From Candidatus Gastranaerophilales bacterium (GTDB taxonomy: Bacteria; Cyanobacteriota; Vampirovibrionia; Gastranaerophilales; Gastranaerophilaceae), in NCBI GenBank assembly GCA_017402995.1, contig JAFQOV010000006.1:1-64000 (forward strand): a stretch of 64,000 nucleotides of DNA. Reading direction: 5' to 3'. Below the pieces are notes generated by a model, which worked only from the letters and a program-made list of their open reading frames with translations, searched no databases and was not told the origin of the DNA. Of the stretch, positions 12,704 to 30,717 are shown piece after piece; within the stretch, counting starts at the first letter, position 1, and each line of letters starts with the position of its first letter. Position numbers and translations under genes: made by a program.

Positions 12704-15475
12704 ATGTTATCTGCAATTTCTAATATAAAATTAAATAATATATTCTTTAAAGGCAATCATACAGAGAAAAACAACACTCCTCGTCCTCAAACAGAAGAGG
12801 ATATTTTTGATGGCTATACTCTTGAAGAATTTATCGACAATTCAATTCAAGATATGCTTTCACAAGGTTTTGACTTGGGAGATGTTGGCGAATTTAAAAG
12901 AAAATTAAGACTAGAAGCAGATTTAGTCCGCTATTTTGCACTGTTATCAAATAAAGAAGTTGCAAAATTAATCCGACAAGTTGCAACAAATAAAAAAATG
13001 GATTTAAAAACTTTCAATTCAATTATGACGCGCACTGCGCCATTGATTGACATGAACGAAATTGATAAAACATTTGCTTCAGCTGGCATTAACTCCCTAA
13101 GACAAGCAGAAGATTGCGCAAAAATAATTTCAAGAAACAAATCTGCAACAGCGCCTTTATATAGCAAATATGAAGAAGCCGTGCATATCTATGGTTTATT
13201 AAAATCGAAAGAAGACTTGGCAAATTTCCCTGAGCTCTTAATAGAGCTTTATAAAGATGAAGAAAACTCTTTTAATCCTAATTTTGCAATAATTAATGAA
13301 TATTGTGAATTTTTAAAAGCAGAAGGCATACAAAACTTTAACCACGTTGAAACAAGCTTGGCACATTTGAGCGAATACTTTGAAGACTTTGAAACTCCGC
13401 AGGACAAAATTGAAGCAATCAAATACGCATACAATGAATATCAAGACAAGCTTGAATTAACAGCGCAAATATACGAAGCTAATCCTTTAACAAAAGAAGG
13501 CGTTAAAGTTTTATATAAAGAAAATAAAGATATTATAAGCTATGTCTATAATTCTGGAAGCGAAGAAGAGCTTGATAATTTAGTTGAAATTAAAGACTAT
13601 CTAGCAAACAGAAAAAAGGTTAAATTTCCGCAAGGTAGCGAGCTTGGCAAGCACTTTAACGACTTTAAAACTCCGCAAGATAAAATTGATTTCTATTTAT
13701 TTTTAAAAGATTGCAACATCTCAAGCACAGACTATGCAAGTCTTGGCAAAAATTCTGTTACAAATATCGGAATTACAAAGAAAATTTTAAACAAAAGCGC
13801 AATAATTGAAAAACTTCAATCTATGACTGATTGGAGCGAACAAAAAATCAATGATTTTTACAAAACAAATAATGAAATTTTAACGCTTGGCGCAATCATG
13901 CAAGAGCAAGACCCAAGCTCAGATTCTTTTTTGTTAGTTTTTAATTTCATTAACAAATTTAATATCAAAAACCCTACCTCACTTTTAAATCAATATAACA
14001 CTTTTTATCGCACAAAAGAAAAAACCCTAACAGCAGAAAAAACTTTAGATTTTCTTGAACTAACAAAATTCATTGGAAATGGAAACATTGTTGAAGATTC
14101 AAGAAAAATGAATATGTCATCTGCTGCGCTTTTACAATCAAGAAAAGAAAAATTTGAAGCGATAGAAAAAGATATCCAAGCATTTTTAGACGAAACAGAT
14201 AATGAATGTTTTGTTTCAATGACAGCACTTGATGTTTTTAACAAATATAGAGAGCTTTTTGGCTTAAATTCAAATGTCAAAGATGTTTTAGAAAATATTA
14301 CTTTTTTAGAAACAGAAAACATTGAACAATTCCAACAGCAAACACAAGCAATTGAGCCATTTGTCGAATTTTTCGATAACAAAAAAGAGCTTTTAAACTT
14401 CTTTAAAGCAAACCAAATTAAACTTGATAATACAAAGGAAGAAGCTTTGTATCGCGATATGTGTTATGAAATAATCGCGCAATTAAGACAAAACTCAATG
14501 TTTGATAACGAAGAATTTAAAAATAAACTTCAACAACTAACAAAAAACAAAGTTTTGAAATCTTCAAAAAGCCAATGTGACGTATTTAAAAAAGATTTAT
14601 CTTGTAAAAAAGATTTCCCTCAAATCGTAGAAATTCTTTGCAAAAAAGATGTTAAAACGATTAAAAACCTAGCAACTTTCCTAACCAAAACTCAAGATAT
14701 TAATGGCGACACGCAAAATGTTACAGAAGCTTTGTTAAATAGCCCTGATGAAATCAATCTTGAAAATTTCAAAAAGATTATTAAAAACATACAAAAAACA
14801 GCAACAAGATTTGGCATTAAAGCAACGGTTAACAACGAAAACATCTCTAACCTTAATATATCAAAATATCAAAAAATATCAACATCTTTTGATGGCTTAA
14901 ACAATCTTTTTGAAAAATTATTAAATAAAAAATGTGATAATTTCTTGCCTTTAACAATCAATGGCACAACAAGAAAACCAAAAACTTTTTCATCATATGA
15001 AATTGCGTCAGAATTAATGACAAAACAAGACCACGTTGATAGCGCATATCAAAACATAAAAGATGTATTAGGCATCAACGTTGATTTGCAAAATGAAGAT
15101 GCGTCATTAAAATATCAATATATCAGCATGATTGCCAAAAGATTACCCAAAGAATTTATCGAATTTGTTAATTCTCCATCTTGGCATACATTAGAAAATG
15201 GCAAAATTGCAAACTTAAACCTACATGCAAAATTAAGAACCATTGGCAGATTTGCACTTGACGAAAACAGTGAATTGTCTGATTTATATAACCCAAAAAC
15301 AAAAGAAAAATTGCAAAACCTTTTCAATACTGTTTATCTTGAAAAAGCAACAGATATCAAAGAAATTACAGATTTCCAAAACCGTTATATGACAGTATCA
15401 AAATTTGAAAATGATATTATTGAAGCAATTTTCACCCCTCAAGGTGAACTAATCACAATTTATCCAAAGATTTAG
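12704..15475 (+). CDS. Large conserved-looking unknown protein with internal repeats
   Basis: I do not recognise a family. The product is 923 residues, soluble, Lys/Glu/Asn-rich and apparently almost entirely helical, with no signal peptide or membrane segment. A duplicated segment is visible: YFEDFETPQDKIEAI (about residues 225-239) and HFNDFKTPQDKIDFY (about 317-331), 92 residues apart, suggesting tandem helical modules. The N-terminus (NIKLNNIFFKGNHTEKNN) looks like a short tag followed by a disordered, Asn/Pro-rich stretch. A promoter-like TATAAT lies at 12669-12674, and TTAGG precedes the ATG. The gene converges on the acetyltransferase with a 4-base stop overlap. A structural or effector-like role is possible but unsupported. 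Confidence 0.75.
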   Translation: MLSAISNIKLNNIFFKGNHTEKNNTPRPQTEEDIFDGYTLEEFIDNSIQDMLSQGFDLGDVGEFKRKLRLEADLVRYFALLSNKEVAKLIRQVATNKKMDLKTFNSIMTRTAPLIDMNEIDKTFASAGINSLRQAEDCAKIISRNKSATAPLYSKYEEAVHIYGLLKSKEDLANFPELLIELYKDEENSFNPNFAIINEYCEFLKAEGIQNFNHVETSLAHLSEYFEDFETPQDKIEAIKYAYNEYQDKLELTAQIYEANPLTKEGVKVLYKENKDIISYVYNSGSEEELDNLVEIKDYLANRKKVKFPQGSELGKHFNDFKTPQDKIDFYLFLKDCNISSTDYASLGKNSVTNIGITKKILNKSAIIEKLQSMTDWSEQKINDFYKTNNEILTLGAIMQEQDPSSDSFLLVFNFINKFNIKNPTSLLNQYNTFYRTKEKTLTAEKTLDFLELTKFIGNGNIVEDSRKMNMSSAALLQSRKEKFEAIEKDIQAFLDETDNECFVSMTALDVFNKYRELFGLNSNVKDVLENITFLETENIEQFQQQTQAIEPFVEFFDNKKELLNFFKANQIKLDNTKEEALYRDMCYEIIAQLRQNSMFDNEEFKNKLQQLTKNKVLKSSKSQCDVFKKDLSCKKDFPQIVEILCKKDVKTIKNLATFLTKTQDINGDTQNVTEALLNSPDEINLENFKKIIKNIQKTATRFGIKATVNNENISNLNISKYQKISTSFDGLNNLFEKLLNKKCDNFLPLTINGTTRKPKTFSSYEIASELMTKQDHVDSAYQNIKDVLGINVDLQNEDASLKYQYISMIAKRLPKEFIEFVNSPSWHTLENGKIANLNLHAKLRTIGRFALDENSELSDLYNPKTKEKLQNLFNTVYLEKATDIKEITDFQNRYMTVSKFENDIIEAIFTPQGELITIYPKI

Positions 15476-19236: not shown

Positions 19237-19875
19237 ATGAAGCTAAGCATTAACCCGCAAACATTTAAAAGTCATTATAGTTTTTATACAAGCGAAAAAA
19301 CGCACGACGCTCAAATGCGTCTATTAAAAATGCAAAATGAAAACCTAGATTACAACGAAAAACCAACAGATGATATTAACTTATTAACAAAAGGAATCTA
19401 TGGCGAAGCTTTTGTTTGCGCAAGCAACAGATACGACAAAAAAATTGAAAATATTTTAGCTTCGCGTGGAATTGAATTTCACAAGTGTTCATTAGAAGAA
19501 ATGGAAACAGAAAAATCTGTCCTTTCAAGAATTGAACAATGCCCATATGACAAACACAAAGAATATTATTTATTAGATGTTGATGTAGAAAAATTTGACG
19601 AAGCCTTCCAAAAAAGCGGACACTATATTGGTAAATTTGGTAAAGGCGGAATTGGAACAAGATATTTAGATTTTCAAAAATATTTAAAAAGCGGTCTACC
19701 AATCCATGCTTCAACTGTTGTAATCTCAGAAGAAAATGGCAAACCAATTGCAACATTTGTTGATGGCAGACACAGATACAGCGTCATGCGCGATAGAGGT
19801 TTTTCAAGAATTCCAATTTCAATGAATACAAGCTCTATGTTGACTGCAGAAAAATATGGCTTATTAAAAGACTAA
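19237..19875 (+). CDS. Unknown protein with a ParB/sulfiredoxin-like GRHR motif
   Basis: A 212-residue soluble protein not assigned to a family. Near the C-terminus it has FVDGRHRYSVMRDRGFSRIPISM, which resembles the DGxHRxxAxxxxGxxxIPV signature of the ParB/sulfiredoxin fold, but the usual upstream ParB boxes are not clear. The N-terminal half is charged and Tyr-rich. The gene converges on the calpain-like protease gene with interlocked stops. A nucleotide-binding or ADP-modifying enzyme is one option; nothing in the sequence settles it. Confidence 0.65.
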   Translation: MKLSINPQTFKSHYSFYTSEKTHDAQMRLLKMQNENLDYNEKPTDDINLLTKGIYGEAFVCASNRYDKKIENILASRGIEFHKCSLEEMETEKSVLSRIEQCPYDKHKEYYLLDVDVEKFDEAFQKSGHYIGKFGKGGIGTRYLDFQKYLKSGLPIHASTVVISEENGKPIATFVDGRHRYSVMRDRGFSRIPISMNTSSMLTAEKYGLLKD

Positions 19876-20972
19876 AATAAATCTTTGAAAAACTCTACAA
19901 TTTTTGAGATTAAATTTCCAAAAAATCCTTTGTCTTCTTCTTTTTCAGAAATAATGTTATATGGATTTTCGTTGTTTAATTCTTCTTGTGCTTCTTTAAT
20001 TTTTTCTTTTATAGCTTGAGTCTTGTCTGAAAGGTCTACTTTTTTAGCACCACTTGTTTCAAGTGTTGAATTTTTATCATAGCCTTCTTGTCTATACGTA
20101 ATTCTTTGCGCAACCTTTTTAAAACTTTCCATTGAAAGAGTTAATTCCTTAGATGAATCATGTGGATTTACAAAACTCACACTATTGTTATCCATTTTTG
20201 TAACAGTATAAGCATGTTGCATTGGTAATTTAATTCCTTCAATTTCAACATATGCCTTATCGCCTTGCGCGTGGTCTGGAGTTGAAAAACCAATGATTGA
20301 GTGTCTTTGTTGTGGATTATTTAACTTTTCTTCACCTGCAACAGAATTGACAAAATTCCAAGAAGCGCCCTCGCCTGTGATATGTGTATATGCTTCATTT
20401 ATTTGTCCGCCAGTTAAAACATTACCGCTCACATCTTCTGGCAATTCTTCTTTGTTTCCATATTTATCTTCAACTAAGCCGCCACCAATATCATTTCTTA
20501 AGGCTTCATATGCAACTTCAAGCGCCAACATGTCGTCATCACCTTTTGAATATTCGCCATTTATATTGATAGCTGTTCTCATATATCCATCTTCATCATA
20601 AATTGGATACATCATGTTTTCAGAGTCTAATAATTCTAAATCTGCTTTATTAATTGAATAAGTTGCAAAATTGCCATCTTTATCTTTAACACCTTTAAAA
20701 GTGACATCAATTGTATCGCCATTATCTTTAATTACATCTTTTAAAAATCCAGGTCTATTTTTTTCAATTGCATTCACTGCGCTCAACAAATAGCAATCGC
20801 CAATTTGCCCTTGTTTTGTTGCGTCAATTTCGCCATCACAATCAATAGAATATGCTTTATCATCAGTTTTAGAAAAAATAGATTGTTCGTAATTTTGATT
20901 ATCTACGCTTTCTCTGTCGCCAATTTTAACCGAAACGTCAGAAAATTGCTTGTTTGCCGTTTTTTCAATCAC
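19872..20972 (-). CDS. Calpain-like (family C2) cysteine protease
   Basis: A 366-residue protein with the hallmarks of a papain-fold calpain catalytic core. The segment QGQIGDCYLLSAVNAIEKN carries the catalytic Cys (C60) in the GDCYLLSA signature. A His lies in PMQHAYTVTKM (H253), and an Asn in SFVNPHDSS (N269) takes the place of the calpain NPWG Asn. There is no signal peptide, but the C-terminus ends in a hydrophobic/amphipathic tail (GFFGNLISKIVEFFKDLF) after a Glu/Lys-rich linker. The start is GTG, supported by TTGGAG seven bases upstream. Calpains are mainly eukaryotic; bacterial members are scattered and mostly uncharacterised. Substrate and Ca2+ dependence are unknown. Confidence 0.85.
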   Translation of the reverse strand: MIEKTANKQFSDVSVKIGDRESVDNQNYEQSIFSKTDDKAYSIDCDGEIDATKQGQIGDCYLLSAVNAIEKNRPGFLKDVIKDNGDTIDVTFKGVKDKDGNFATYSINKADLELLDSENMMYPIYDEDGYMRTAININGEYSKGDDDMLALEVAYEALRNDIGGGLVEDKYGNKEELPEDVSGNVLTGGQINEAYTHITGEGASWNFVNSVAGEEKLNNPQQRHSIIGFSTPDHAQGDKAYVEIEGIKLPMQHAYTVTKMDNNSVSFVNPHDSSKELTLSMESFKKVAQRITYRQEGYDKNSTLETSGAKKVDLSDKTQAIKEKIKEAQEELNNENPYNIISEKEEDKGFFGNLISKIVEFFKDLF

Positions 20973-21226: not shown

Positions 21227-23872
21227 ATGCCGAAAGTAATCGAAAAAAAAGAAGAAAAAAAGGCTTTAAAAGCAACAAACATTGTTGATTCTGTTGAAGC
21301 ATTAAACGAATTGCTTGACAGAGTACAAAAAGCACAAAAAGAATTTTCAAAATTTTCACAAGAACAAGTGGACAAAATCTTCAAGGCAGCTTCAACTGCT
21401 GCTGACAAAGCACGTATCCCTCTTGCAAGAATGGCTGTTGAAGAAACAGGCATGGGTGTTTTAGAAGATAAAATCATTAAAAACCACTTTGCTTCAGAAT
21501 ACATCTACAATAAACACAAAGACGCAAAAACTTGCGGAATTATCAAACGCGATAGAGAAAACGGTATCAGAACAGTTGCAGAACCTTTGGGTATTTTAGC
21601 TGGTATTATCCCAACAACAAACCCAACTTCAACTGCAATTTTCAAAGCTTTAATCGCTTTAAAAACAAGAAATGCTATCGTATTTTCTCCGCACCCAAGA
21701 GCAACAAAATGTACAATTGAAGCAGCTAAACTTGTTTTAAATGCTGCAATTGAAGCTGGTGCCCCAAAAGATATCATTGGTTGGATTGACGTTCCATCAA
21801 TGGAATTGTCAGACGCATTATTACACCACAAAAACATCAATTGCATCTTGGCAACAGGTGGTCCTGGCATGGTCTTAGCTGCATATTCATCAGGAAAACC
21901 AGCTCTAGGTGTTGGTCCTGGTAATACTGCTGCTGTGATTGATGAATCTGCTGATATCAAAATGGCTGTTTCTTCAATTTTAATGTCAAAAACATTTGAT
22001 AACGGCATGATTTGTGCTTCTGAACAATCAATTATCGTTATCGAAGACGTTTACGAAGAAGTTAAAAAAGAATTTGTATATCGTGGCGCATATTTGGTAA
22101 ACAAAGAAGAACAACAAAAAATGATGGATTTACCATTTATCGATCCAAAAAGAGGCACAGCGCACCCTCTAATTGTTGGTCAACCAGCTACAAAAATCGC
22201 AGAACTTTCTGGTTTTAACATTCCTGAAGATTCAAAAATCTTGCTTTGCGAAAGAGAAAAACTAGACTGGGAAGACCCATTCTCAAGAGAAAAATTATCT
22301 CCAATCTTAACAATGTATAAAGCTAAAAACTTTGAAGAAGCAACAGAAATGGCTCACGAATTAGTTTTAAAAGGTGGCGCAGGTCACACTTCTGTTCTTT
22401 ACACAGATGAAAGAAAAGAAGACAGAATTAATGCGTATGCTGAAAAAATGCCTTCTTGCCGTATTTTAATCAACTCTCCATCTTCACAAGGTGGTATTGG
22501 TGATTTATTCAACTTCAAATTAGAACCATCTCTATCTCTTGGTTGTGGTTCTTGGGGCGGAAACGCAGTTTCTGGAAATATCGGCGTAGAACATTTATTA
22601 AACTACAAAACTGTAGCTGAAAGGAGAGAAAATATGTTATGGTTTAAAGTTCCACCAAAAGTGTACTTTAAAAGAGGTTGCACAGATTTAGCACTTAGAG
22701 AATTAAAAGGCAAAAAACGTGCATTTATCGTAACAGACCGTTTCTTATTCAACTCAGGCGCAGTTGATAGAATTACAAAAGTATTAGACGAAATTGGAAT
22801 TGATCATCAAGTATTCTTTGATGTTAAACCAGACCCAACAATTGCAACAATCAATCAAGCTATGGAAATCGTTAGACCATATGAACCTGATGTAATTATT
22901 GCTCTTGGTGGCGGTTCTCCAATGGACGCTGGTAAAATCATTTGGTTATTATATGAACAACCAGATACAAACTTTGAAGATATCTCTATGAGATTTATGG
23001 ATATCAGAAAAAGAATTTGTCAAATTCCTGAATTAGGTAAAAAAGCCGAAATGGTTTGTATCCCAACAACTTCAGGTACAGGTTCAGAAGTTACACCATT
23101 TTCTATCATTACAGACGAAAAAACACATTACAAATATGCAATTGCAGATTATGCCCTAACTCCAAATATGGCTATCGTTGACGCTAACTTCGTTGACGGT
23201 ATGCCAAAAGGATTAACTGCAGCATCTGGTATTGACGCATTAGTACACTCTCTAGAAGCATATGTTTCTTGCTTAGCAACAAACTTCACAAACTCAAATG
23301 CGCTAGAAGCAACTAAATTAATCTTTAAATATTTAACTCGTTCATATAACGAAGGTGCTAATGATCCAATCGCAAGAGAAAAAATGCACTATGCAGCAAC
23401 TATCGCAGGTATGTCATTTGCAAACTCTTTCTTAGGAATTTGTCACTCAATGGCACACAAATTAGGTGCTATGTATAGCATTCCTCACGGTGTTGCAAAC
23501 GCATTGTTAATTCGTCAAATCATTAAATTCAACGCAACTGATAAACCAACAAAACAAGCTATTTTCCCTCAGTACAAATATCCTTGTGCTAAAACAAAAT
23601 ATGCTCAAATTGCTGATGAAATCGGTTTAGGCGGCAAAAACGACGACGAAAAAGTCGAATTGCTAATCAAAGCAGTTGAAGAGTTAATGAACGAAATCAA
23701 CCTACCAAAATCTATCAGAGAATTTGGTGTTAAAGAAGAAGAATTCATGGCTAATCTTGACCTATTGGTTGAAAGAGCATTTGACGACCAATGTACAGGT
23801 GCAAACCCAAGATACCCACTTATGAAAGAAATGAAACAAATCTTCTTAAACGCATATGAAGGTATAGTTTAA
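21227..23872 (+). CDS. adhE: Bifunctional acetaldehyde-CoA / alcohol dehydrogenase
   Basis: Fermentative enzyme of 881 residues that reduces acetyl-CoA to acetaldehyde and then ethanol, oxidising two NADH. The N-terminal aldehyde dehydrogenase domain (to about residue 440) has the catalytic Cys at C263 in FDNGMICASEQS. After the linker, the C-terminal iron alcohol dehydrogenase has the NAD-binding GGGSPMDAGK and the iron ligands in GIDALVHSLEAY, GICHSMAHKLGA and IPHGVANALL. The length is standard. AAAGGAG precedes the ATG. It has its own strong promoter, a candidate Rex operator and a terminator, so it is probably a monocistronic unit controlled by NADH/NAD+ ratio. In many anaerobes Rex represses adhE (known biology). 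Confidence 0.97.
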   Translation: MPKVIEKKEEKKALKATNIVDSVEALNELLDRVQKAQKEFSKFSQEQVDKIFKAASTAADKARIPLARMAVEETGMGVLEDKIIKNHFASEYIYNKHKDAKTCGIIKRDRENGIRTVAEPLGILAGIIPTTNPTSTAIFKALIALKTRNAIVFSPHPRATKCTIEAAKLVLNAAIEAGAPKDIIGWIDVPSMELSDALLHHKNINCILATGGPGMVLAAYSSGKPALGVGPGNTAAVIDESADIKMAVSSILMSKTFDNGMICASEQSIIVIEDVYEEVKKEFVYRGAYLVNKEEQQKMMDLPFIDPKRGTAHPLIVGQPATKIAELSGFNIPEDSKILLCEREKLDWEDPFSREKLSPILTMYKAKNFEEATEMAHELVLKGGAGHTSVLYTDERKEDRINAYAEKMPSCRILINSPSSQGGIGDLFNFKLEPSLSLGCGSWGGNAVSGNIGVEHLLNYKTVAERRENMLWFKVPPKVYFKRGCTDLALRELKGKKRAFIVTDRFLFNSGAVDRITKVLDEIGIDHQVFFDVKPDPTIATINQAMEIVRPYEPDVIIALGGGSPMDAGKIIWLLYEQPDTNFEDISMRFMDIRKRICQIPELGKKAEMVCIPTTSGTGSEVTPFSIITDEKTHYKYAIADYALTPNMAIVDANFVDGMPKGLTAASGIDALVHSLEAYVSCLATNFTNSNALEATKLIFKYLTRSYNEGANDPIAREKMHYAATIAGMSFANSFLGICHSMAHKLGAMYSIPHGVANALLIRQIIKFNATDKPTKQAIFPQYKYPCAKTKYAQIADEIGLGGKNDDEKVELLIKAVEELMNEINLPKSIREFGVKEEEFMANLDLLVERAFDDQCTGANPRYPLMKEMKQIFLNAYEGIV

Positions 23873-23883
23873 AAAATAAATTT

Positions 23884-23930
23884 GGGGCTTTGCTCTTTTT
23901 CGTGCTTTCTGTGAAGCCCCTCCTTTTTTT
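23884..23930 (+). terminator. Terminator after adhE
   Basis: GGGGCTT (23884-23890) pairs with AAGCCCC (23914-23920), with a T-rich 23-base loop, followed by TCC and seven T residues. Confidence 0.75.
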
Positions 23931-23943
23931 AAACCATATAAAA

Positions 23944-23952
23944 TGCTAAAAT
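23944..23952 (+). promoter_or_regulatory. Promoter of the rex-hydrogenase operon
   Basis: Extended -10 TGCTAAAAT (23944-23952) just after the adhE terminator, with no clear -35. Predicted +1 is near 23959, which leaves a 27-base leader carrying GGGAG before the rex start at 23986. Confidence 0.5.
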
Positions 23953-23985
23953 AAAAAGGTTGTTTTATATATGGGAGTAATGAAA

Positions 23986-24600
23986 ATGAATATTCCTGAT
24001 AAAGTTGTAAATCGTTTAACAATGTACCACTTTATTCTTGAAGATATAAGAGATGATGAAAAATATATTTCAAGTACCAAATTTGCAAACTTGTTAAATA
24101 TTGATAATTCTCAAGTGAGAAAAGATTTAAAATATGTCGATAACCAAGGAAAATGCAGAGTTGGTTTTGAAGCGAAAAAACTCAAGAAAAAAATCGAAGA
24201 ATGCTTAGGTTTCAAAAAAACAAAAGATGTCTTTATTGTTGGCGCAGGAAACTTGGGCTCCGCACTAGCAAAATATGACAGCTTTAAAGACTATGGCTTA
24301 AATGTTCTTGCAATGTTTGACAAAGACCCGAAAAAAATCGGAACCTTTGTAAATGGAAAAGAAGTATTTGACATCTCAAAAATTGCAAACTTAACAAAAC
24401 GTCTAAATGTTGAGGTGGCTATTTTAACGGTTCCAAGAGAATATGCAGAAGGTGTTGCAAACTATCTTGCTGGCTCAGGAATTAAATATATTTGGAATTT
24501 CACAACTTGCATACTTGATGTTCCGAAAAATGTAAAAGTTTGGAACGAAAATTTAATCGGCAGTTTTCTGCAATTCACAAACACAGATAAGGAAGCATAA
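23986..24600 (+). CDS. rex: Redox-sensing transcriptional repressor Rex
   Basis: NADH-responsive repressor of about 204 residues. An N-terminal winged helix (KYISSTKFANLLNIDNSQVRKDLKYV) matches Rex, in which the SSxxLAxxLGVxxxQVRKDL pattern is diagnostic. A Rossmann domain (VFIVGAGNLGSALAKY, then AMFDKDPKKIG) and the C-terminal domain-swap helix (ENLIGSFLQFTN) follow. Rex leaves DNA when NADH is high. The ATG at 23986 was chosen because GGGAG lies 8 bases upstream; in-frame ATGs exist at 23971 and 23980. It heads the ferredoxin/hydrogenase genes at 6-base spacing and probably regulates adhE and possibly this operon. Confidence 0.93.
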   Translation: MNIPDKVVNRLTMYHFILEDIRDDEKYISSTKFANLLNIDNSQVRKDLKYVDNQGKCRVGFEAKKLKKKIEECLGFKKTKDVFIVGAGNLGSALAKYDSFKDYGLNVLAMFDKDPKKIGTFVNGKEVFDISKIANLTKRLNVEVAILTVPREYAEGVANYLAGSGIKYIWNFTTCILDVPKNVKVWNENLIGSFLQFTNTDKEA

Positions 24601-24606
24601 ACAAAA

Positions 24607-24840
24607 ATGACAACAGAAATAAAAATATGTATGGGTAGCGCTTGTTTTGCAAAAGGCAATCAAGAAAATCTAGAATTCATTAAACAATACATAGAAGAAA
24701 ATAATCTCGACTCTGAAATAACAATAATTGGATCATTATGTGAAAACAAATGCGAAAAAGGTCCAAGAATAATCATAAACGATAAAGAATATACAAATGT
24801 GACACCAGATTACATTGAAAAAATCTTAAAGGAGCAATAA
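24607..24840 (+). CDS. Thioredoxin-like [2Fe-2S] ferredoxin (NuoE-like), first copy
   Basis: Small electron carrier of 77 residues with the four cysteines expected for a thioredoxin-fold [2Fe-2S] cluster: C8 and C13 (CMGSAC) and C45 and C49 (CENKC). It lacks the N-terminal part of NuoE/HydC, as do stand-alone shethna-type ferredoxins in hydrogenase loci. It is located between rex and the sensory hydrogenase at very short spacing, so it probably passes electrons to or from the adjacent [FeFe] protein. That pairing is inferred from gene order. Confidence 0.85.
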   Translation: MTTEIKICMGSACFAKGNQENLEFIKQYIEENNLDSEITIIGSLCENKCEKGPRIIINDKEYTNVTPDYIEKILKEQ

Positions 24841-24843
24841 AAA

Positions 24844-26577
24844 ATGGAAAGCCAATATCCTGTTTACACTTTGAAAAATGAATGTAACGATTGTTATAAA
24901 TGTATCCGAGGATGCCATGTTAAAGCAATCAAAATTCAACAGGGAAGCGCTTCTGTTATAAACGAAAAATGTATCGCTTGCGGACATTGCGTTCAAGATT
25001 GTCCAGCAGGAGCAAAAAAAGTAAGAAGTGATATTGGCGCCGTCAAAACATTACTCTTAACAGGCAAAGATGTATATGTATCACTTGCACCAAGTTGGGC
25101 AGGTATTTACAATATATCAAAAGAAAAAATGATTGCAGCCTTGAAAAAGCTTGGCTTCAAAGGTGTGTCAGAAACCGCGCTTGGAGCACAAGAGGTTTCG
25201 ATTGAGACAGCTAAAATGTTAAATCAAGCAGAAAAAGGGCTTTTTGTTTCATCTGCCTGTCCTGTAATTGACGATTACATCAAACTTTATAAACCAAACT
25301 TTGCAAAATGTATAACCCCAATTGCATCTCCTGCTCTAACACATTGCGCTTTATTAAAAGACATGTTAGGAGAGGATATTAAAGTTGTGTTTATTGGTCC
25401 TTGTATTGCAAAGAAAAACGAAGCAGATAAACACCCAGATTTGATGTCGGCTGCTTTAACTTTTGATGAGCTTAATTATTGGCTTAAAGAAGAATTTATA
25501 GATATTAAAAATATTGAAGTAAATGATGATTGCAAATTTGTCCCAGAAAGCGCCTATGAAGGTGCGCTATATCCACTTGAGGGTGGCATGAACGAAACAA
25601 TTAAGCAAGTTGGCATAGACAAAAATGATGTCACTTTCATTGCTGTGAGTTCAATTGAAAGCTTTGATAAAGCATTACAAAATATCAACCCAGACAAAGT
25701 TGAAAACAAAATTTTCGTCGAAGCTCTTGCTTGTTCTGGCGGTTGCATTAATGGACCTTGCATTGCAAGCGACAAATCAAGAATTCTTATCACATCAGAT
25801 ATTTATGCAAATACGCAATATAGAGACGATATTCCAAAAGAACCAAAAAAAGTTGTCCAAGAAGAATATACACCGGCTCCAATTAAAAAAGTTGAATATT
25901 CAATTGAGCAAATTACAAAAGCTCTGAAAAAAATTAGCAAACATACGCAAGAAGACGAGCTTAACTGTTCAGGTTGCGGATATTCTAGTTGCAGAGAATT
26001 TGTAAACGCGCTCATTGCGGGCGACGCAGAACCTTCTCAATGCGCTTCATATATGAGAAAAATTGCAGTCAGAAAAGCTGCTGCAATGTTAAGATGTATG
26101 CCATCAGCTGTTGTTATTGTAGATTCAAATTTGCAAATTGTTGAAGCAAACGATTCGTTTGAACATATGTTTTTACCAGAAGATATGTATGAAATCTTTG
26201 CTTCAAGACAAGATGGCTTAACAGGCGCTTGCATTGACAGAATTGTTGAATTTTCTGAATTGTTCAAATCAGCTCTTGATACAGGACATGAAATCCACCA
26301 AGAGCACTATGCAACAAAAGACAAAGTTTACGACATAAGCATTTTCACAATTGAAGACAATGAACTTGTTGGCGCGGTTATTTCTGACGTTACAAAATCA
26401 GAAATCGACAGAACAAAAATTGCGAAAAAAGCAAGAGAAGTTATCACAAAAAATATTGCAACAGTTCAAGAAATCGCAAGTCTTTTAGGCGAACACATGG
26501 TTGAAACAGAACTTCTATTAAATTCAATTGCGCAAGGATACGAAACAAACTCTGGAGAGTCTAATAATGTTCATTGA
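24844..26577 (+). CDS. hydS: Sensory [FeFe] hydrogenase with C-terminal PAS domain (HydS/HfsB-like)
   Basis: A 577-residue protein. It starts with two [4Fe-4S] motifs (C14, C17, C20, C24; C43, C46, C49, C53). The H-cluster domain follows with ligand cysteines C139 (SSACP), C187 (IGPCIAKKNE), C297 and C301 (ACSGGC). A further Cys-rich Fe-S segment (CSGCGYSSC near residue 380) and a PAS domain (about 415-510) complete it. The residue before C139 is Ala, where catalytic enzymes have the proton-relay Cys (TSCCP). Loss of that Cys plus a PAS domain is the pattern of group C sensory hydrogenases, which sense H2 rather than produce it. AAAGGAG precedes the ATG. The phosphatase gene overlaps its 3' end, suggesting that they act as a pair. 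Confidence 0.88.
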   Translation: MESQYPVYTLKNECNDCYKCIRGCHVKAIKIQQGSASVINEKCIACGHCVQDCPAGAKKVRSDIGAVKTLLLTGKDVYVSLAPSWAGIYNISKEKMIAALKKLGFKGVSETALGAQEVSIETAKMLNQAEKGLFVSSACPVIDDYIKLYKPNFAKCITPIASPALTHCALLKDMLGEDIKVVFIGPCIAKKNEADKHPDLMSAALTFDELNYWLKEEFIDIKNIEVNDDCKFVPESAYEGALYPLEGGMNETIKQVGIDKNDVTFIAVSSIESFDKALQNINPDKVENKIFVEALACSGGCINGPCIASDKSRILITSDIYANTQYRDDIPKEPKKVVQEEYTPAPIKKVEYSIEQITKALKKISKHTQEDELNCSGCGYSSCREFVNALIAGDAEPSQCASYMRKIAVRKAAAMLRCMPSAVVIVDSNLQIVEANDSFEHMFLPEDMYEIFASRQDGLTGACIDRIVEFSELFKSALDTGHEIHQEHYATKDKVYDISIFTIEDNELVGAVISDVTKSEIDRTKIAKKAREVITKNIATVQEIASLLGEHMVETELLLNSIAQGYETNSGESNNVH

Positions 26578-27724
26578 TATCGCTTGTTCACAAAAAAAGA
26601 AATATAACCAAAACGCATATGGCGATTATTTTGCTTCAAACAGATTTCCAAACATGAATCGCATTGTTGCAGTGTTATCTGACGGGCTTGGAAGCGGAAT
26701 TAAGGCAAATATTTTGGCTTGTATGACTTCAACAATGCTTTTAAAATTCATGGAAAACCATTCAGACATTGAAAAATCTTGCGAAATCATCATGAACTCG
26801 CTTCCCGTTTGCAAAATAAGAGGGATTAGCTATTCGACTTTTTCGGCGATTGATTGTTTTGAAAACGGAAAAGCAAAAATCGTAGAAGAAGGAAACCCTG
26901 ATTTTATTTGGATAAGAAATAATGAAGTTTTAAAACCTGAGTTTCAAACAATACAATCAAAAGATTTCAAAAACCGAAAAATGAAATTTTACGATATTCA
27001 ACTTGAAAGATATGACAGAATTATTTTTTGCTCAGATGGCGCAACACAAGTTGCAATGGGTTCAAAAGAATTTCCCCTTGGACTAGAAAGAAGTGGGCTC
27101 ATAAAAATAATTCTTAAAAAATTAGAACAAGAGCCAGAGATATCCTCAAAAGATTTAAGTGATTTTTTAATTAAACAAATTCAATATATTGCTCCTAAAA
27201 AAGAGCTTAAAGACGACACTTCTATTGTCTCTATCTATTGCAGAGACCCTAGAGAGTCACTTATTTTCACAGGTCCACCTTATCACAGCGAAAAAGATAG
27301 CTTTTATGCAAACAACTTTATAAATTTCAAAGGCAAAAAGGCAATCTCTGGCGGAACAACAGCAAACATAATTTCAAGAGAATTAAATATTCCTGTTTCA
27401 GCGGATTTATCAACTAACACAGGAAAACTCCCAGGGCTTTTAAAAATGGAAGGCGTGGATTTGGTTACAGAAGGAATTTTGACCTTAACTAAGACATTAG
27501 AATATCTTAAAAACGAAAAACCAGAAAAAAACGCCGCAAAAGTTCTAATGGATTTTCTACTAGATAGCGACGTCATCAACTTTTTAGTTGGTGCGCAAGT
27601 AAACAAAGCACATTACGACCCAAGCTTGCCAATTGAAATTGAAATCAGAAAAAACATTATCAAACAAATGGCACAAGTATTAGAAGAAAAATATTTGAAA
27701 AAAGTGAACATACAATTCATATAA
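26567..27724 (+). CDS. SpoIIE/PP2C-type Ser/Thr phosphatase of the hydrogenase locus
   Basis: A 385-residue protein. The N-terminal PP2C phosphatase domain shows the metal-binding aspartates in LSDGLGSGIKA, FCSDGATQVAMG and KDDTSIVSIY. The C-terminal 150 residues (from about KGKKAISGGTTANIISREL) form a second domain that I know only from phosphatases next to sensory hydrogenases. The start is the ATG at 26567, preceded by GGAGAG. It overlaps the hydrogenase stop by 11 bases, so translation is probably coupled. A likely role is to relay the H2 signal from HydS by dephosphorylating a partner; the partner kinase is not in the window. Confidence 0.87.
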   Translation: MFIDIACSQKKKYNQNAYGDYFASNRFPNMNRIVAVLSDGLGSGIKANILACMTSTMLLKFMENHSDIEKSCEIIMNSLPVCKIRGISYSTFSAIDCFENGKAKIVEEGNPDFIWIRNNEVLKPEFQTIQSKDFKNRKMKFYDIQLERYDRIIFCSDGATQVAMGSKEFPLGLERSGLIKIILKKLEQEPEISSKDLSDFLIKQIQYIAPKKELKDDTSIVSIYCRDPRESLIFTGPPYHSEKDSFYANNFINFKGKKAISGGTTANIISRELNIPVSADLSTNTGKLPGLLKMEGVDLVTEGILTLTKTLEYLKNEKPEKNAAKVLMDFLLDSDVINFLVGAQVNKAHYDPSLPIEIEIRKNIIKQMAQVLEEKYLKKVNIQFI

Positions 27725-27779
27725 AATGCACCGCAGGAAATATGCTTTCGAGTTATACTAAAAGTAAAAGGAGAAAAAA

Positions 27780-28037
27780 ATGGACAAAATTTCAGTAAAA
27801 GTATGTGTTGGGACAACCTGTTTTGTAATGGGTGGTGCTAGCTTACAAGAATTAAATGACATTATCCCTAAAAAATATGGAGACAAAGTGGAAATTGCTG
27901 CAAGCAACTGCTTAGGTCTTTGCTCAATCAATTGGGAATATTCAAAAGCTCCTTATGTAAAAGTTAACGAGGAAGTAGTTGCAAACGCAACAACAGAAAA
28001 GGTTTTAGAAGAAATAGACAGACAATTAGGAATCTAA
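27780..28037 (+). CDS. Thioredoxin-like [2Fe-2S] ferredoxin, second copy
   Basis: An 85-residue relative of the protein at 24607. The cysteines are C9 and C14 (CVGTTC) and C44 and C48 (CLGLC), the spacing of a NuoE-like [2Fe-2S] fold. AAAAGGAG precedes the ATG, and the catalytic hydrogenase gene starts one base after its stop. The two copies each sit directly upstream of one hydrogenase gene, which suggests dedicated electron carriers, one for the sensor and one for the enzyme. Confidence 0.86.
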   Translation: MDKISVKVCVGTTCFVMGGASLQELNDIIPKKYGDKVEIAASNCLGLCSINWEYSKAPYVKVNEEVVANATTEKVLEEIDRQLGI

Positions 28038-28038
28038 A

Positions 28039-29499
28039 ATGAACAACAACGCAGGCCAAGCAATACGATTAAAAAAAGAAATATTAGTAAGAATTATCAA
28101 GGCATTTTTGTCAGAAGATTTTAAGGAGCAAACCCGCCTTATCCCATACGATATGCGCCCAAAAGGCATGGAGGTTCCTTATCGCTGCTGCATTTATAAA
28201 GAAAGAGCAATCATTAAAGATAGAACAATTGCGGGACTAGGTTTTGCAATTGAAGAAGATAATGAAACAACTCTATTATCAACATATGCTCAAAAAGCTT
28301 TAGAAAGAACCGAAATCAGCAACAAAAATCTGACTGTTTTACAAGCAGCATGCAAAGGCTGTAATACAAACAGAATTTATGTTACAGACTTATGTCAAGG
28401 TTGTGTTGCGCGCCCTTGTGAATCATCTTGTAAATTTGGCGCGATTTCAATTGTGAATGGTCGTTCTGTAATTGACGATTCAAAATGTAAAAAATGTCAA
28501 ATGTGCGTTAATGCTTGTCCATATAATGCCATTGTAAAAATCACAGTACCTTGCGAAGAAGCTTGTCCTGTCGGAGCAATTAAAAAAGATGAAACTGGTT
28601 TTGCGAGCATTGACCATGAAAAATGTATCAATTGCGGAAGATGTACTGCAGCTTGTCCTTTTGGCGCAGTACACGAAAAAAGTCAAATTATCGACATTTT
28701 AAAAGAAATCAAATCTGACAAAAAAGTTATAGCAATGATTGCACCATCAATCGCAGGACAATTCCCTGGAAACATTTACCAACTTAAAACTGCGATTATG
28801 AAAGCTGGGTTTGACGATGTATATGAAGTGGCTCAAGGGGCTGATATCACGGCAAACAACGAAGCTAAAGAATTTATTGAGCGAATGGAAGGCGATCAAA
28901 AATTCATGACAACTTCATGTTGCGCTGGATATAATCAGCTAATTGAAAAACATTTGCCACAAATTAAACCTTTTGTTTCAGACACAAAAACGCCTTTGTT
29001 CTATACAGCAGAAATCGTAAAACAAGAACACCCAGACGCTGTGACTGTTTTTGTTAGTCCTTGTGTTGCAAAACGCGCAGAAGGTTTTGACAATCCAAAC
29101 GTTGATTACGTTATGAATTACGAAGAACTTGGAGCATTATTTGTCGCTAAGAAAATTCAAATTATGGATTGTGAAGAAACAAAATATACAAAAGAAGCGT
29201 CAAAACAAGCTAGAAACTTTGGCTATACGGGTGGAGTCGCTGAATCCGTTAAAGCTTCATTAAAAGACGAAGACAAAATTAAACCATGTATTATTAGCGG
29301 ATTAACCAAAGAAAGCATTAAACAATTAAAACAATATGCTACAAATGGTGAGTGCGCAAATGGTTGCAATCTTGTTGAGGTAATGTGTTGCGAAGGCGGC
29401 TGCATTGGTGGAAACGCAACAATTAACAGCGTCAGAACCGCAAAAAAACAAATTGATAATTTTACCGCTAACAGCGAAAATATACCTAAAATAGAATAA
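28039..29499 (+). CDS. hydA: Catalytic [FeFe] hydrogenase, group B-like
   Basis: A 486-residue hydrogenase that would reduce protons with ferredoxin electrons. A Cys-rich N-terminal half (from ACKGCNTNR through CINCGRCTAACPFGA, about residues 110-215) holds several Fe-S clusters. The H-cluster domain has TSCCAGY (proton-relay C294, ligand C295), SPCVAKRAE (C342), and MCCEGGC (C451, C455). The domain order and short C-terminus resemble group B enzymes of gut Clostridia and Bacteroidetes. The maturases HydE, HydF and HydG are not in the window but would be required. It lies between a small ferredoxin gene and an alcohol dehydrogenase gene. Confidence 0.9.
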   Translation: MNNNAGQAIRLKKEILVRIIKAFLSEDFKEQTRLIPYDMRPKGMEVPYRCCIYKERAIIKDRTIAGLGFAIEEDNETTLLSTYAQKALERTEISNKNLTVLQAACKGCNTNRIYVTDLCQGCVARPCESSCKFGAISIVNGRSVIDDSKCKKCQMCVNACPYNAIVKITVPCEEACPVGAIKKDETGFASIDHEKCINCGRCTAACPFGAVHEKSQIIDILKEIKSDKKVIAMIAPSIAGQFPGNIYQLKTAIMKAGFDDVYEVAQGADITANNEAKEFIERMEGDQKFMTTSCCAGYNQLIEKHLPQIKPFVSDTKTPLFYTAEIVKQEHPDAVTVFVSPCVAKRAEGFDNPNVDYVMNYEELGALFVAKKIQIMDCEETKYTKEASKQARNFGYTGGVAESVKASLKDEDKIKPCIISGLTKESIKQLKQYATNGECANGCNLVEVMCCEGGCIGGNATINSVRTAKKQIDNFTANSENIPKIE

Positions 29500-29523
29500 T
29501 TCACAAAAGAAAAGGAGTTTAAC

Positions 29524-30717
29524 ATGATTGATTGGGAAAAAAACATCAACATTAATGAAGTAAAAGAAATCAGAACTCGCTCAACAGTTTATTTTGGCTG
29601 CGGCGCAATCCAAAAAATACACGACATTGCAAAATTATATTCTCAAAAAGGCATAGACAAAGTTATTGTCATGTCAGGGAAAAATGCGTATAAATCAACA
29701 GGCGCTTGGGAAGTTGTTGAAAAAGCTTTAAAAGAAAATAATATTGGATATGTTAATTACGACAAAGTAACTCCAAACCCAACAACAGACGCTATTGATG
29801 AAGCAACAAAAATGGCGCTTGAATTTGGCGCAAAAGCTGTAATCACAATTGGTGGCGGTTCGCCAACAGACGCTGGTAAATCTGTCGCAATTTTATTAAA
29901 ATATCCAAACGAAACAAGTGAAAGCCTATATACCTTTAAATTTACTCCAACACAAGCAGCCCCAATCGTTGCAATCAATTTAACACACGGAACAGGCTCT
30001 GAAACAAACAGATTTGCCGTTGCAACAATCTTAGAAAAAAATTACAAACCAGCAATTGCATATGATTGCATTTACCCTGAATTTGCAATTGACGACCCAG
30101 ATTTAATGATAGGTTTATCTTTAAATCAAACAAAATATGTTTCAATTGACGCTGTAAATCACGTTGTTGAGGCTGCTACAACAACTGTAACTTCACCTTA
30201 TGCTATTACTCTTGCAAGAGAAACAATTGAACTTGTAAGCAAATATTTACCAAAAGCAATCGAAAACCCAAAAGATAAAGAAGCAAGATATTATTTGTGC
30301 TATGCAGCAATGATAGCAGGTGTGTGTTTTGATAATGGCTTATTGCATTACACGCACGCACTTGAACACCCATTGAGCGCAATGAAGCCAGACTTTTCTC
30401 ATGGCTTAGGTTTGGCGATTTTACTTCCTGCAGTTGTAAAAAATATTTATGATGTTAAAGCGCAAACTCTAAATTACATTTTAGAGCCAATATCAAAAAA
30501 TATTAATTCTGCAGAATCTGCCTCTGAAGCTGTTTATGAATGGCTTAAATCTGTTGGTGTTCCAAACAAACTTAAAGATGAAGGTTTTAATGAAAGTGAT
30601 GTTGAAAAATTGACTCAACTTGCGTTCACTACTCCTTCCCTAGATGGTTTATTGGGAATTGCACCAACAAAAGCAACAAAAGAAGCTGTTGAAACAATCT
30701 ATAAAGAATCTTTATAA
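29524..30717 (+). CDS. Iron-containing alcohol dehydrogenase
   Basis: A 397-residue group III alcohol dehydrogenase. NAD(P) binding: ITIGGGSPTDAGKSVA. Metal ligands lie in SIDAVNHVVEAATT, HYTHALEHPLSA and FSHGLGLAILL. An AAAGGAGT site precedes the ATG, 24 bases after the hydrogenase stop. It is probably the last gene of the rex-hydrogenase operon and offers another NAD(P)H sink. Substrate (ethanol, butanol, propanediol or other) is unknown. A good terminator follows. Confidence 0.92.
   Translation: MIDWEKNININEVKEIRTRSTVYFGCGAIQKIHDIAKLYSQKGIDKVIVMSGKNAYKSTGAWEVVEKALKENNIGYVNYDKVTPNPTTDAIDEATKMALEFGAKAVITIGGGSPTDAGKSVAILLKYPNETSESLYTFKFTPTQAAPIVAINLTHGTGSETNRFAVATILEKNYKPAIAYDCIYPEFAIDDPDLMIGLSLNQTKYVSIDAVNHVVEAATTTVTSPYAITLARETIELVSKYLPKAIENPKDKEARYYLCYAAMIAGVCFDNGLLHYTHALEHPLSAMKPDFSHGLGLAILLPAVVKNIYDVKAQTLNYILEPISKNINSAESASEAVYEWLKSVGVPNKLKDEGFNESDVEKLTQLAFTTPSLDGLLGIAPTKATKEAVETIYKESL

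What the first reader, a model, noticed from the sequence alone, without database searches (positions are those of the whole stretch)
19872..20972. Bacterial calpain-like protease
C60-H253-N269 and GDCYLLSA place this protein in the C2 calpain group, which is mainly eukaryotic. It has no other calpain domains and ends in a hydrophobic tail that could be a membrane-active or targeting element. In a host-associated bacterium it might be an effector.
Basis: partly seen in the sequence, partly recalled or inferred. Interest (0 to 1): 0.55.

Follow-up and report, generated by a model that had tools for sequence, protein, structure and literature searches.

The report
Calpain-type protease of gut cyanobacterium
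A non-photosynthetic cyanobacterium of a mostly gut-dwelling group carries a working-looking relative of the animal protease calpain; the enzyme type is known, but its relatives form a large, fast-changing gene family in this bacterial class, with no known job.

Summary
The minus-strand ORF 20972..19872 (366 aa, GTG start behind GGAG) is a calpain-family (C2) cysteine peptidase: Pfam PF00648 above cut-off for the whole protein, Q54/C60/H253/N269 in place and nearly invariant in 56 domains of the family, and an AlphaFold model that matches calpains (Z 16.9, 226 residues) far better than papain-like folds. It has no EF-hand or CIII domain; an S/T/N/Q-rich disordered N-terminus and a strongly amphipathic C-terminal helix flank the core.

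Bacterial calpains are known (Rawlings 2015), so the fold is not surprising. New here: in this class of non-photosynthetic Cyanobacteriota the domain is found in 149 of 194 genomes, often in several divergent copies with different N-terminal regions. None of 88 relatives has a signal-peptide-like N-terminus. The host genome shows no VirB4 or C39 match but has flagellar-type export gates, so non-Sec export is possible; nothing shows it. Some related domains have lost both Cys and His.

Verdict: real; a new member of a known peptidase family inside an apparently undescribed expansion. Export from the cytosol: open (about 0.4); effector on host cells about 0.2. Ca2+ dependence: undecided.

The parts
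19872..20972 (-). 366-aa calpain-type (C2) cysteine peptidase gene, GTG start
   Evidence: Pfam PF00648 34.9 bits
20980..20983 (-). Shine-Dalgarno-like GGAG, 7 bases before the GTG
   Evidence: read from the sequence; not scored by a tool
20862..20972 (-). residues 1-37: N-terminal segment, 32% S/T/N/Q in residues 2-26; no signal peptide-like stretch
   Evidence: pLDDT under 50 for residues 1-25; composition; no TM window
20871..20882 (-). residues 31-34 SIFS: short motif enriched in N-terminal regions of the family
   Evidence: pattern in 42 of 112 N-regions, shuffle mean 11.8, highest of 200 shuffles 24, other ORFs 79 of 587; pattern chosen after looking
20076..20861 (-). residues 38-299: calpain-type protease core (PC1+PC2)
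   Evidence: HMM; AF2 blocks around C60, H253 and N269 at pLDDT 92-94, loops 121-140, 171-180 and 221-240 at 53-68; VIA-align Z 16.9 to calpain-1 core
20811..20813 (-). Q54, oxyanion-hole glutamine position
   Evidence: Q in 56 of 56 domains
20793..20795 (-). C60, catalytic nucleophile position
   Evidence: C in 54 of 56, aligned to calpain GDCWLL
20214..20216 (-). H253, catalytic base position
   Evidence: H in 54 of 56, aligned to calpain GHAY
20166..20168 (-). N269, triad asparagine position
   Evidence: N in 50 of 56, D in 6, aligned to calpain NPW
20532..20543 (-). residues 144-147 GDDD: conserved acidic motif G-D-x-D of the family
   Evidence: G144 51, D145 45, D147 43 of 56
19971..20030 (-). 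residues 315-334: predicted helix after the core
   Evidence: DSSP on the AF2 model, block pLDDT 67-84
19878..19928 (-). residues 349-365: amphipathic C-terminal helix
   Evidence: moment 0.71, no TM window; helix in the AF2 model at block pLDDT 55-75
19237..19875 (+). convergent neighbour, 212 aa, no family; its end overlaps the protease's stop. Probably not a partner
   Evidence: matches in 7 of 28 genomes of the genus, own included

Best explanation
The gene encodes an active, stripped-down calpain: one papain-like (clan CA, family C2) endopeptidase core in which Q54 forms the oxyanion hole, C60 attacks the peptide bond, H253 acts as base and N269 orients it. It cuts proteins in a limited, regulatory way rather than digesting them (inferred from the family). 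It is a standalone accessory gene in a fast-diverging family in which one core is combined with ever-changing N-terminal regions. The amphipathic C-terminal helix most likely docks the enzyme on a membrane surface (inferred). Because none of the examined relatives has a Sec-type signal and their N-termini are S/T/N/Q-rich, export by a non-Sec route is my slightly favoured reading for where it works. The only candidate machine I found is the flagellar-type type III export apparatus (inferred; about 0.4 for export, 0.35 for a purely intracellular role). Shown: fold class, triad conservation, family size, absence of signal-peptide-like N-termini. Inferred: activity, membrane docking, export, target.
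For: Pfam C2 above cut-off. Q/C/H/N in 56/54/54/50 of 56 domains, and C and H in 83 of 84 rows of A3, a set picked partly through those motifs. The profile finds calpain-9 at E 7.7e-12 with Cys, His and Asn aligned. For the model, all 39 PDB matches at E<=0.001 are calpains; Z is 16.9 to the calpain-1 core against at most 9.2 for staphopains. The best-scoring match outside its own gene in 288 genomes of the family is 33% identical, E 6.1e-20. Half of the genus has such genes (14 of 28). P0001 sits on a long end branch of 1.73. 0 of 88 relatives have a signal-peptide-like N-terminus against 124 of 587 other ORFs of the same loci and the window (Fisher p 8e-9). N25 S/T/N/Q is 0.352 (70 relatives) against 0.226 (324 ORFs), p 4e-14. 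Export gates: three FHIPEP proteins, with a FlhA-FlhB-FliR-(FliQ by position)-FliP run on C21 and a FliE-FliF-x-FliH-FlhA-like run on C6. No VirB4-type or C39 match at E<=0.001.
Against: No activity, secretion or expression data exist. S/T/N/Q-rich disordered N-termini are common in cytosolic proteins too, and the family is S/T/N/Q-richer over its whole length (0.253 against 0.211). FHIPEP genes prove flagellar-type export, not that this protein is cargo. Relatives are frequent in a family of the class with 2-9 Mb genomes (f8, up to 10 matches per genome), so a gut-host role cannot explain the whole family. The amphipathic tail is not a family trait: 7 of 88 relatives against 25 of 587 controls meet the same thresholds, and two of 88 have a membrane-spanning stretch before the core instead. 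TM-scores to calpains are at most 0.44 by the query's and 0.50 by the target's length. The tree clusters the genus more than chance (12 label changes, shuffled mean 19, 1 of 500 shuffles as low) and its starred branches force only 2 changes, so wide scattering within the genus is not proven.
Confidence: 0.6

Rival explanations
1. A purely intracellular regulatory protease: it stays in the bacterial cytosol, docks on the inner membrane through its tail, and trims bacterial proteins on a signal, like soluble eukaryotic calpains.
For: 0 of 88 relatives have a signal-peptide-like N-terminus. FHA and weak EF-hand modules, which suggest signalling, sit beside the core in some relatives (FHA 74.5 bits in L008; EF-hand E 6e-5, under its cut-off, in L013). 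Cyanobacterial calpains were predicted cytosolic (PMC9380684, passages).
Against: Presence in only 14 of 28 genomes of the genus, low identity between copies and tandem arrays look unlike a core regulatory enzyme.
Confidence: 0.3
2. A contact-dependent toxin or predation enzyme used against other bacteria or protists, paired with a self-protection gene.
For: A papain-like toxin of contact-dependent inhibition is a structural neighbour at Z 8.5-8.6 (8ssk, 8ssm). Some relatives are giant ORFs (up to 1921 aa among 89), and one carries RTX repeats (L011, 95.9 bits). Three similar giant loci have a 106-aa gene 12 bases downstream.
Against: No neighbour that could be an immunity gene recurs across the family in 77 loci; neighbours are shared only within sets of closely similar loci. 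No PADLOC hit. The constant part is the protease, within 30 residues of the C-terminus in 68 of 89 ORFs, and the variable part is N-terminal, the reverse of polymorphic toxins (recalled). Z near 8 is shared by many papain-like folds.
Confidence: 0.12
3. A catalytically dead homologue that works by binding.
For: Two of 56 domains have lost both Cys and His (L049 first copy, L050), and so has one of 84 rows of A3 (L117 second copy).
Against: P0001 itself keeps Q, C, H and N in conserved context.
Confidence: 0.05
4. A recent acquisition from a eukaryotic host.
For: The family is best known from eukaryotes.
Against: Nearest relatives found are in the same bacterial class. Identity to calpains in the structural alignments is 12-21%. 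The published tree separates bacterial from eukaryotic calpains (PMC9380684, abstract). I built no tree with eukaryotic sequences.
Confidence: 0.02

Closest known systems
Bacterial calpain homologues of family C2 (Rawlings 2015, PMC4631099)
   Same: C2 core, usually the C-terminal domain, lacking calpain accessory domains; varied architectures, signal peptides rare (3 of 66 in that paper)
   Different: That paper describes them as rare and in a minority of species; here 149 of 194 genomes of one class have at least one match, with up to 11 matches per genome (matches, some of them split genes)
Tpr protease of Porphyromonas gingivalis (the only biochemically characterised bacterial homologue according to PMC4631099, passage)
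   Same: Bacterial C2 protease
   Different: Not compared by sequence here
Human calpain-1/-3/-9 protease cores
   Same: Whole-core structural match, triad columns aligned
   Different: 12-21% identity in structural alignments, no CIII or penta-EF-hand; calcium-site residues only partly matched
Cyanobacterial calpains (PMC9380684)
   Same: Same phylum, CysPC-only proteins predicted cytosolic
   Different: Photosynthetic genera; Melainabacteria, Vampirovibrio and Gastranaerophil do not occur in that main text

Membership tests
Peptidase family C2 (calpain) | Sequence match to the C2 catalytic domain above a curated cut-off | tested here: met
   PF00648, 34.9 bits against 23.8 for the whole protein; the best single stretch is residues 52-86, and alone is under the cut-off (19.2 bits)
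Peptidase family C2 (calpain) | Cys-His-Asn triad with oxyanion Gln in QGxxGDC / HAY / NP context | tested here: met
Peptidase family C2 (calpain) | Two-part PC1-PC2 core fold | tested here: met
   AF2 model with 142 of 366 residues at pLDDT 90 or more; calpains fill the top of the PDB search, Z 16.9 over 226 residues
Peptidase family C2 (calpain) | Proteolytic activity | not testable with these tools
   needs purified protein
Classical (Ca2+-activated, heterodimeric) calpain | CIII and penta-EF-hand domains | tested here: not met
   no Pfam family other than C2 above its cut-off
Classical (Ca2+-activated, heterodimeric) calpain | Core Ca2+-site residues (site 1 in rat calpain-2: Ile89, Gly91, Asp96, Glu175, from PMC4631099 section 11) | tested here: inconclusive
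   Gly91 matches G47 (G in 40 of 56). By the HMM alignment the Asp96 column is T52, Asp in 0 of 56, but D50 and A51 beside it are often Asp (25 and 22 of 56). The Glu175 column is probably D145 (D in 45 of 56), a placement that rests on a recalled calpain sequence
Type III secreted effector | No Sec signal, disordered N-terminus | tested here: met
   composition only, not specific to export
Type III secreted effector | Injectisome or other delivery machine in the genome | tested here: inconclusive
   three FHIPEP genes: one scores as FlhA above the NCBIfam cut-off, the second is below both the FlhA and the SctV cut-offs, the third matches only profile positions 321-655; needle and secretin genes not sought
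Type III secreted effector | Translocation into a target cell | not testable with these tools
   needs an experiment
Polymorphic toxin / CDI toxin | Adjacent immunity gene | tested here: inconclusive
   no neighbour recurs across the family in 77 loci, only within sets of closely similar loci; the 212-aa neighbour in the window is of unknown family

The most novel reading that the evidence does not exclude
The class of non-photosynthetic gut and environmental cyanobacteria keeps a diversified arsenal of signal-peptide-less calpain-type proteases that are exported by flagellar-type type III machinery, perhaps by a second divergent FlhA system, and act with membrane-docking tails on proteins of host or neighbouring cells. 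Calpain-fold pseudoproteases in tandem would serve as regulators.
Probability: 0.15. Interest if true: 0.75.

Novelty: new member of a known kind. Interest (0 to 1): 0.42.

Why it matters
Bacterial calpains have been described as rare. A class-wide, multi-copy, fast-changing family in mostly uncultured bacteria gives many natural versions of a minimal calpain core, some dead in both catalytic residues. That makes two questions testable: how a calpain works without EF-hands, and whether these bacteria export proteases that act on host or microbial proteins. For the single protein in the window, the finding is an annotation that stands.

Tried and rejected
Close relatives with P0001 alone: none in genome contigs, viral contigs, plasmids or phages. 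The family alignment A2 also found none in viral contigs, so a phage or plasmid origin has no support.

Anti-phage defence: no PADLOC hit for P0001. Phage protein family: only phrog_4463 at E 0.07, ignored. NCBIfam hits for P0001 (inclusion-associated protein E 0.28, phenol-soluble modulin E 0.7) are taken as noise. Pfam MCM_WH_arc 17.4 bits is below its cut-off of 26.1 and is taken as chance.

Operon partner: 1045 ORFs of 77 loci plus the window were clustered. The largest non-C2 cluster (22 ORFs, 18 loci) was not identified by any search; by its look it is a prepilin family common in such genomes (recalled), without a fixed position beside the C2 genes. Of 89 C2 genes outside the window 19 have a same-strand neighbour within 60 bases, in part another C2 gene. 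Sets of closely similar loci share neighbours, but none recurs across the family. AdhE: the genome has three AdhE-like matches, one partial. AdhE- or iron-ADH-like ORFs lie in 4 of 77 other loci, 2.4 to 5.9 kb from the C2 gene. That echoes the window, where AdhE and Rex follow the protease gene, but the order differs, and I treat it as unexplained, possibly chance.

T4SS and C39-type export in the host genome: no match to PF03135 or PF03412 at E<=0.001; the genome is 96.3% complete, so absence is likely but not proven. A LysM-like C-terminus that I suspected in L030 and L058 was not confirmed by Pfam, and MORN_2 in L002 is below its cut-off. RTX repeats suspected in L028 were not confirmed.

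Dropped rows: the 56-domain set leaves out 8 of 62 loci, namely six duplicates (L003, L033, L036, L053, L060, L062), truncated L051 and weak L010. The tree also leaves out the distant L004, L005, L006, L009, L011, L012 and L028, and its 63 rows hold two pairs of identical domains fetched twice, which add to the clustering of the genus. One search uses 70 of 88 relatives (those with an M start). The SIF-like motif was defined after looking at the N-termini, so its shuffle test is only descriptive. Counts are matches; split genes count more than once (three proteins in the window's genome give four matches at 1e-5). My first strand-blind reading of the loci was wrong for minus-strand matches and was replaced.

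Full report
Observation. The stretch holds one ORF on the minus strand, 366 aa from a GTG at 20972, with GGAG seven bases upstream. Pfam places the protein in Peptidase_C2 with 34.9 bits against a cut-off of 23.8 and gives no other family above its cut-off. In the genome search the best single stretch scores 19.2 bits, under the cut-off, so the whole-protein score is needed. The same Pfam family rings in none of 14 control genomes.

Family evidence. The window's genome (1.7 Mb, 26 contigs, 96.3% complete) has three such proteins. From 62 loci and P0001 I took 56 domains (8 loci dropped, listed under Tried and rejected). Q54 is present in 56, C60 in 54, H253 in 54 and N269 in 50 of 56, the other six having Asp. 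The same two domains lack both Cys and His: the first copy in L049, which sits beside an intact second copy, and L050. In the separate set A3 one more tandem copy (L117, second domain) lacks all three triad residues. A3 was gathered partly through GDCWLL and NPW patterns, so its conservation counts are biased upward. Family signatures are D/N-G-x-I-D/E before the active site and S-x-G-D-x-D-x(4)-E-x-A in the first subdomain.

Fold. A profile of 39 domains finds calpain-9 in the PDB sequences at E 7.7e-12; its Cys, His and Asn columns align with calpain's GDCWLL, GHAY and NPW. The AlphaFold2 model from 84 sequences has mean pLDDT 76.6, with 142 of 366 residues at 90 or more. The blocks around C60, H253 and N269 are at 92-94, some core loops at 53-68, and residues 1-25 below 50. 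All 39 Foldseek matches at E<=0.001 are calpains, TM 0.33-0.44 by query and 0.19-0.50 by target. VIA-align gives Z 16.9, 226 residues, 4.1 A for the calpain-1 core, and at most 9.2 for the next group, staphopains. Among viral proteins only an algal giant-virus calpain matches at E<=0.001. So both calpain subdomains are there. Calcium sites: Gly91 of site 1 has a counterpart (G47, 40 of 56). The Asp96 column has no Asp in 56 by the HMM alignment, although acids lie next to it. The counterpart of Glu175 is probably D145 (45 of 56), a placement that leans on recalled sequence. I call calcium dependence undecided.

Spread. With P0001 as query, 136 of 288 genomes of the same family match; the best-scoring match outside its own gene is 33% identical, E 6.1e-20, and shorter matches reach 46%. 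With the profile, 149 of 194 genomes of the class match at E<=0.001. In the phylum 124 of 292 match at 1e-5, the strongest listed being nearly all in the window's own family, and in the genus 14 of 28, own included, at 1e-10. Of 77 loci from named records, 37 titles say Gastranaerophilales, 5 Melainabacteria, 4 Cyanobacteria bacterium and 1 Candidatus Scatousia; 27 name no group, 2 say Acinetobacter and 1 Muribaculaceae. I take the last three for misassigned bins (inference). Many titles name rumen, colon or other gut samples. A large-genome family of the same class (f8, 2-9 Mb) has up to 10 matches per genome. In a tree of 63 domains the 23 same-genus rows need 12 label changes, against a shuffled mean of 19 with 1 of 500 shuffles as low, so the genus is clustered but not one clade on this tree; starred branches force only 2 changes. 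The three proteins of the window's genome do not come out together, yet none lies in a starred set, and end branches are long. The picture is a patchy, fast-diverging family with some close pairs.

Architecture. The core ends within 30 residues of the C-terminus in 68 of 89 relatives' ORFs, behind N-terminal regions of varied length; P0001, with 67 residues after its core, belongs to the minority. Tandem genes and tandem domains occur. Pfam confirms FHA (L008) and RTX repeats (L011) and gives weak EF-hands below cut-off (L013) beside the core. No neighbour gene recurs across the family. The tail of P0001 is a strong amphipathic helix (moment 0.71). Similar helices occur in L002, L015, L023 and L047, and internally in L001, but not across the family (7 of 88 relatives against 25 of 587 other ORFs).

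Export. None of 88 relatives has a hydrophobic N-terminal segment, against 124 of 587 other ORFs of the same loci and the window (Fisher p 8e-9). Two of the 88 have a membrane-spanning stretch further in. Their first 25 residues are richer in S/T/N/Q (0.352 in 70 relatives against 0.226 in 324 other ORFs, p 4e-14), more than their whole-length bias explains (excess 0.099 against 0.015, p 2e-8). A short motif such as SIFS in P0001 recurs in 42 of 112 N-regions, against 11.8 in shuffles, but was chosen after looking; it also occurs in 79 of 587 other ORFs and in some rows runs into EF-hand-like sequence. The genome shows no VirB4-type ATPase and no C39 peptidase at E<=0.001. It has three FHIPEP proteins. 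One lies in a FlhA-FlhB-FliR-FliP run (FliQ assigned by position only) with a flagellin-like gene on the same contig. The second lies behind FliE-, FliF- and FliH-like genes and scores below both the FlhA and the SctV cut-offs. The third matches only the cytosolic part. The window holds a FliD-like gene (below cut-off, E 1.6e-33). Published gut Melainabacteria genomes have flagellar genes and lack a type I secretion system; one lacks filament, cap and L/P-ring genes (PMC3787301, passages). A flagellar-type route is therefore available, but nothing ties this protein to it.

Print. Rawlings 2015 (PMC4631099: abstract, sections 10, 11 and 14, passages) describes bacterial C2 homologues as rare, mostly simple, seldom with signal peptides, with Asp able to replace the triad Asn. 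Veselenyiova 2022 (PMC9380684: abstract, passages) adds photosynthetic cyanobacteria; the names Melainabacteria, Vampirovibrio and Gastranaerophil do not occur in its main text. Searches for Gastranaerophilales+calpain and Melainabacteria+calpain found no paper. That covers only the held open-access library. PMC5877343 and PMC4451040 were seen as passages; the latter proposes T4SS-delivered hydrolases in Vampirovibrio, and 'calpain' does not occur in it.

Judgement. Active C2 protease: about 0.9. Membrane docking by the tail: about 0.5. Export from the cytosol: about 0.4. Effector on host cells: about 0.2. The protein is a new member of a known peptidase family; the class-wide expansion around it appears undescribed in the library searched and is the part worth following.

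Noticed in passing
L228:6749-13427 (G000 contig C6): Gene run with a lytic transglycosylase, FliE-like, FliF-like (below the FliF cut-off), an unknown 319-aa protein, FliH-like and a second full-length FlhA/SctV-like protein below both NCBIfam cut-offs: a possible second type III-type export system beside the canonical flagellar gate on C21. Whether another FliF exists was not searched.
   Followed up: partly
L230:2322-3770 (G000 contig C26): A protein that matches only the cytosolic part of FlhA (profile 321-655) behind about 130 unmatched residues.
   Followed up: partly
window 12704-15475: 923-aa protein without any family above cut-off; S/T/N/Q-rich N-terminus with the same xIF-type motif (EDIFD) as the calpain-type proteins; partial relatives in L123 and L129.
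   Followed up: no
window 19237-19875: 212-aa protein of no known family, convergent with the protease; matches in 7 of 28 genomes of the genus, own included; the end looks ParB/sulfiredoxin-like by eye (recalled, no hit).
   Followed up: no
window 21227-30717: Fermentation and hydrogen cluster: AdhE, Rex, an atypical [FeFe]-hydrogenase-like protein, a weakly SpoIIE-like protein, a monomeric [FeFe] hydrogenase and an iron-type alcohol dehydrogenase. The genome has a second full AdhE on C23.
   Followed up: partly
L089:7227-13757: Another C2 gene 2.4 kb from an AdhE gene with a Rex-like gene between them, probably in the same-genus genome G017: an echo of the window's protease next to AdhE-Rex, with a different gene order.
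   Followed up: partly
L049:181-2025; L117:8628-9311: Tandem calpain-type domains in which one copy lost the catalytic residues while its neighbour kept them, in two different genomes.
   Followed up: partly
L138:1-5606, L144:3-5230, L150:1-5132: Giant ORFs (1600-1759 aa) with two calpain-type domains followed 12 bases later by a 106-aa gene: a possible partner in this subgroup only.
   Followed up: no
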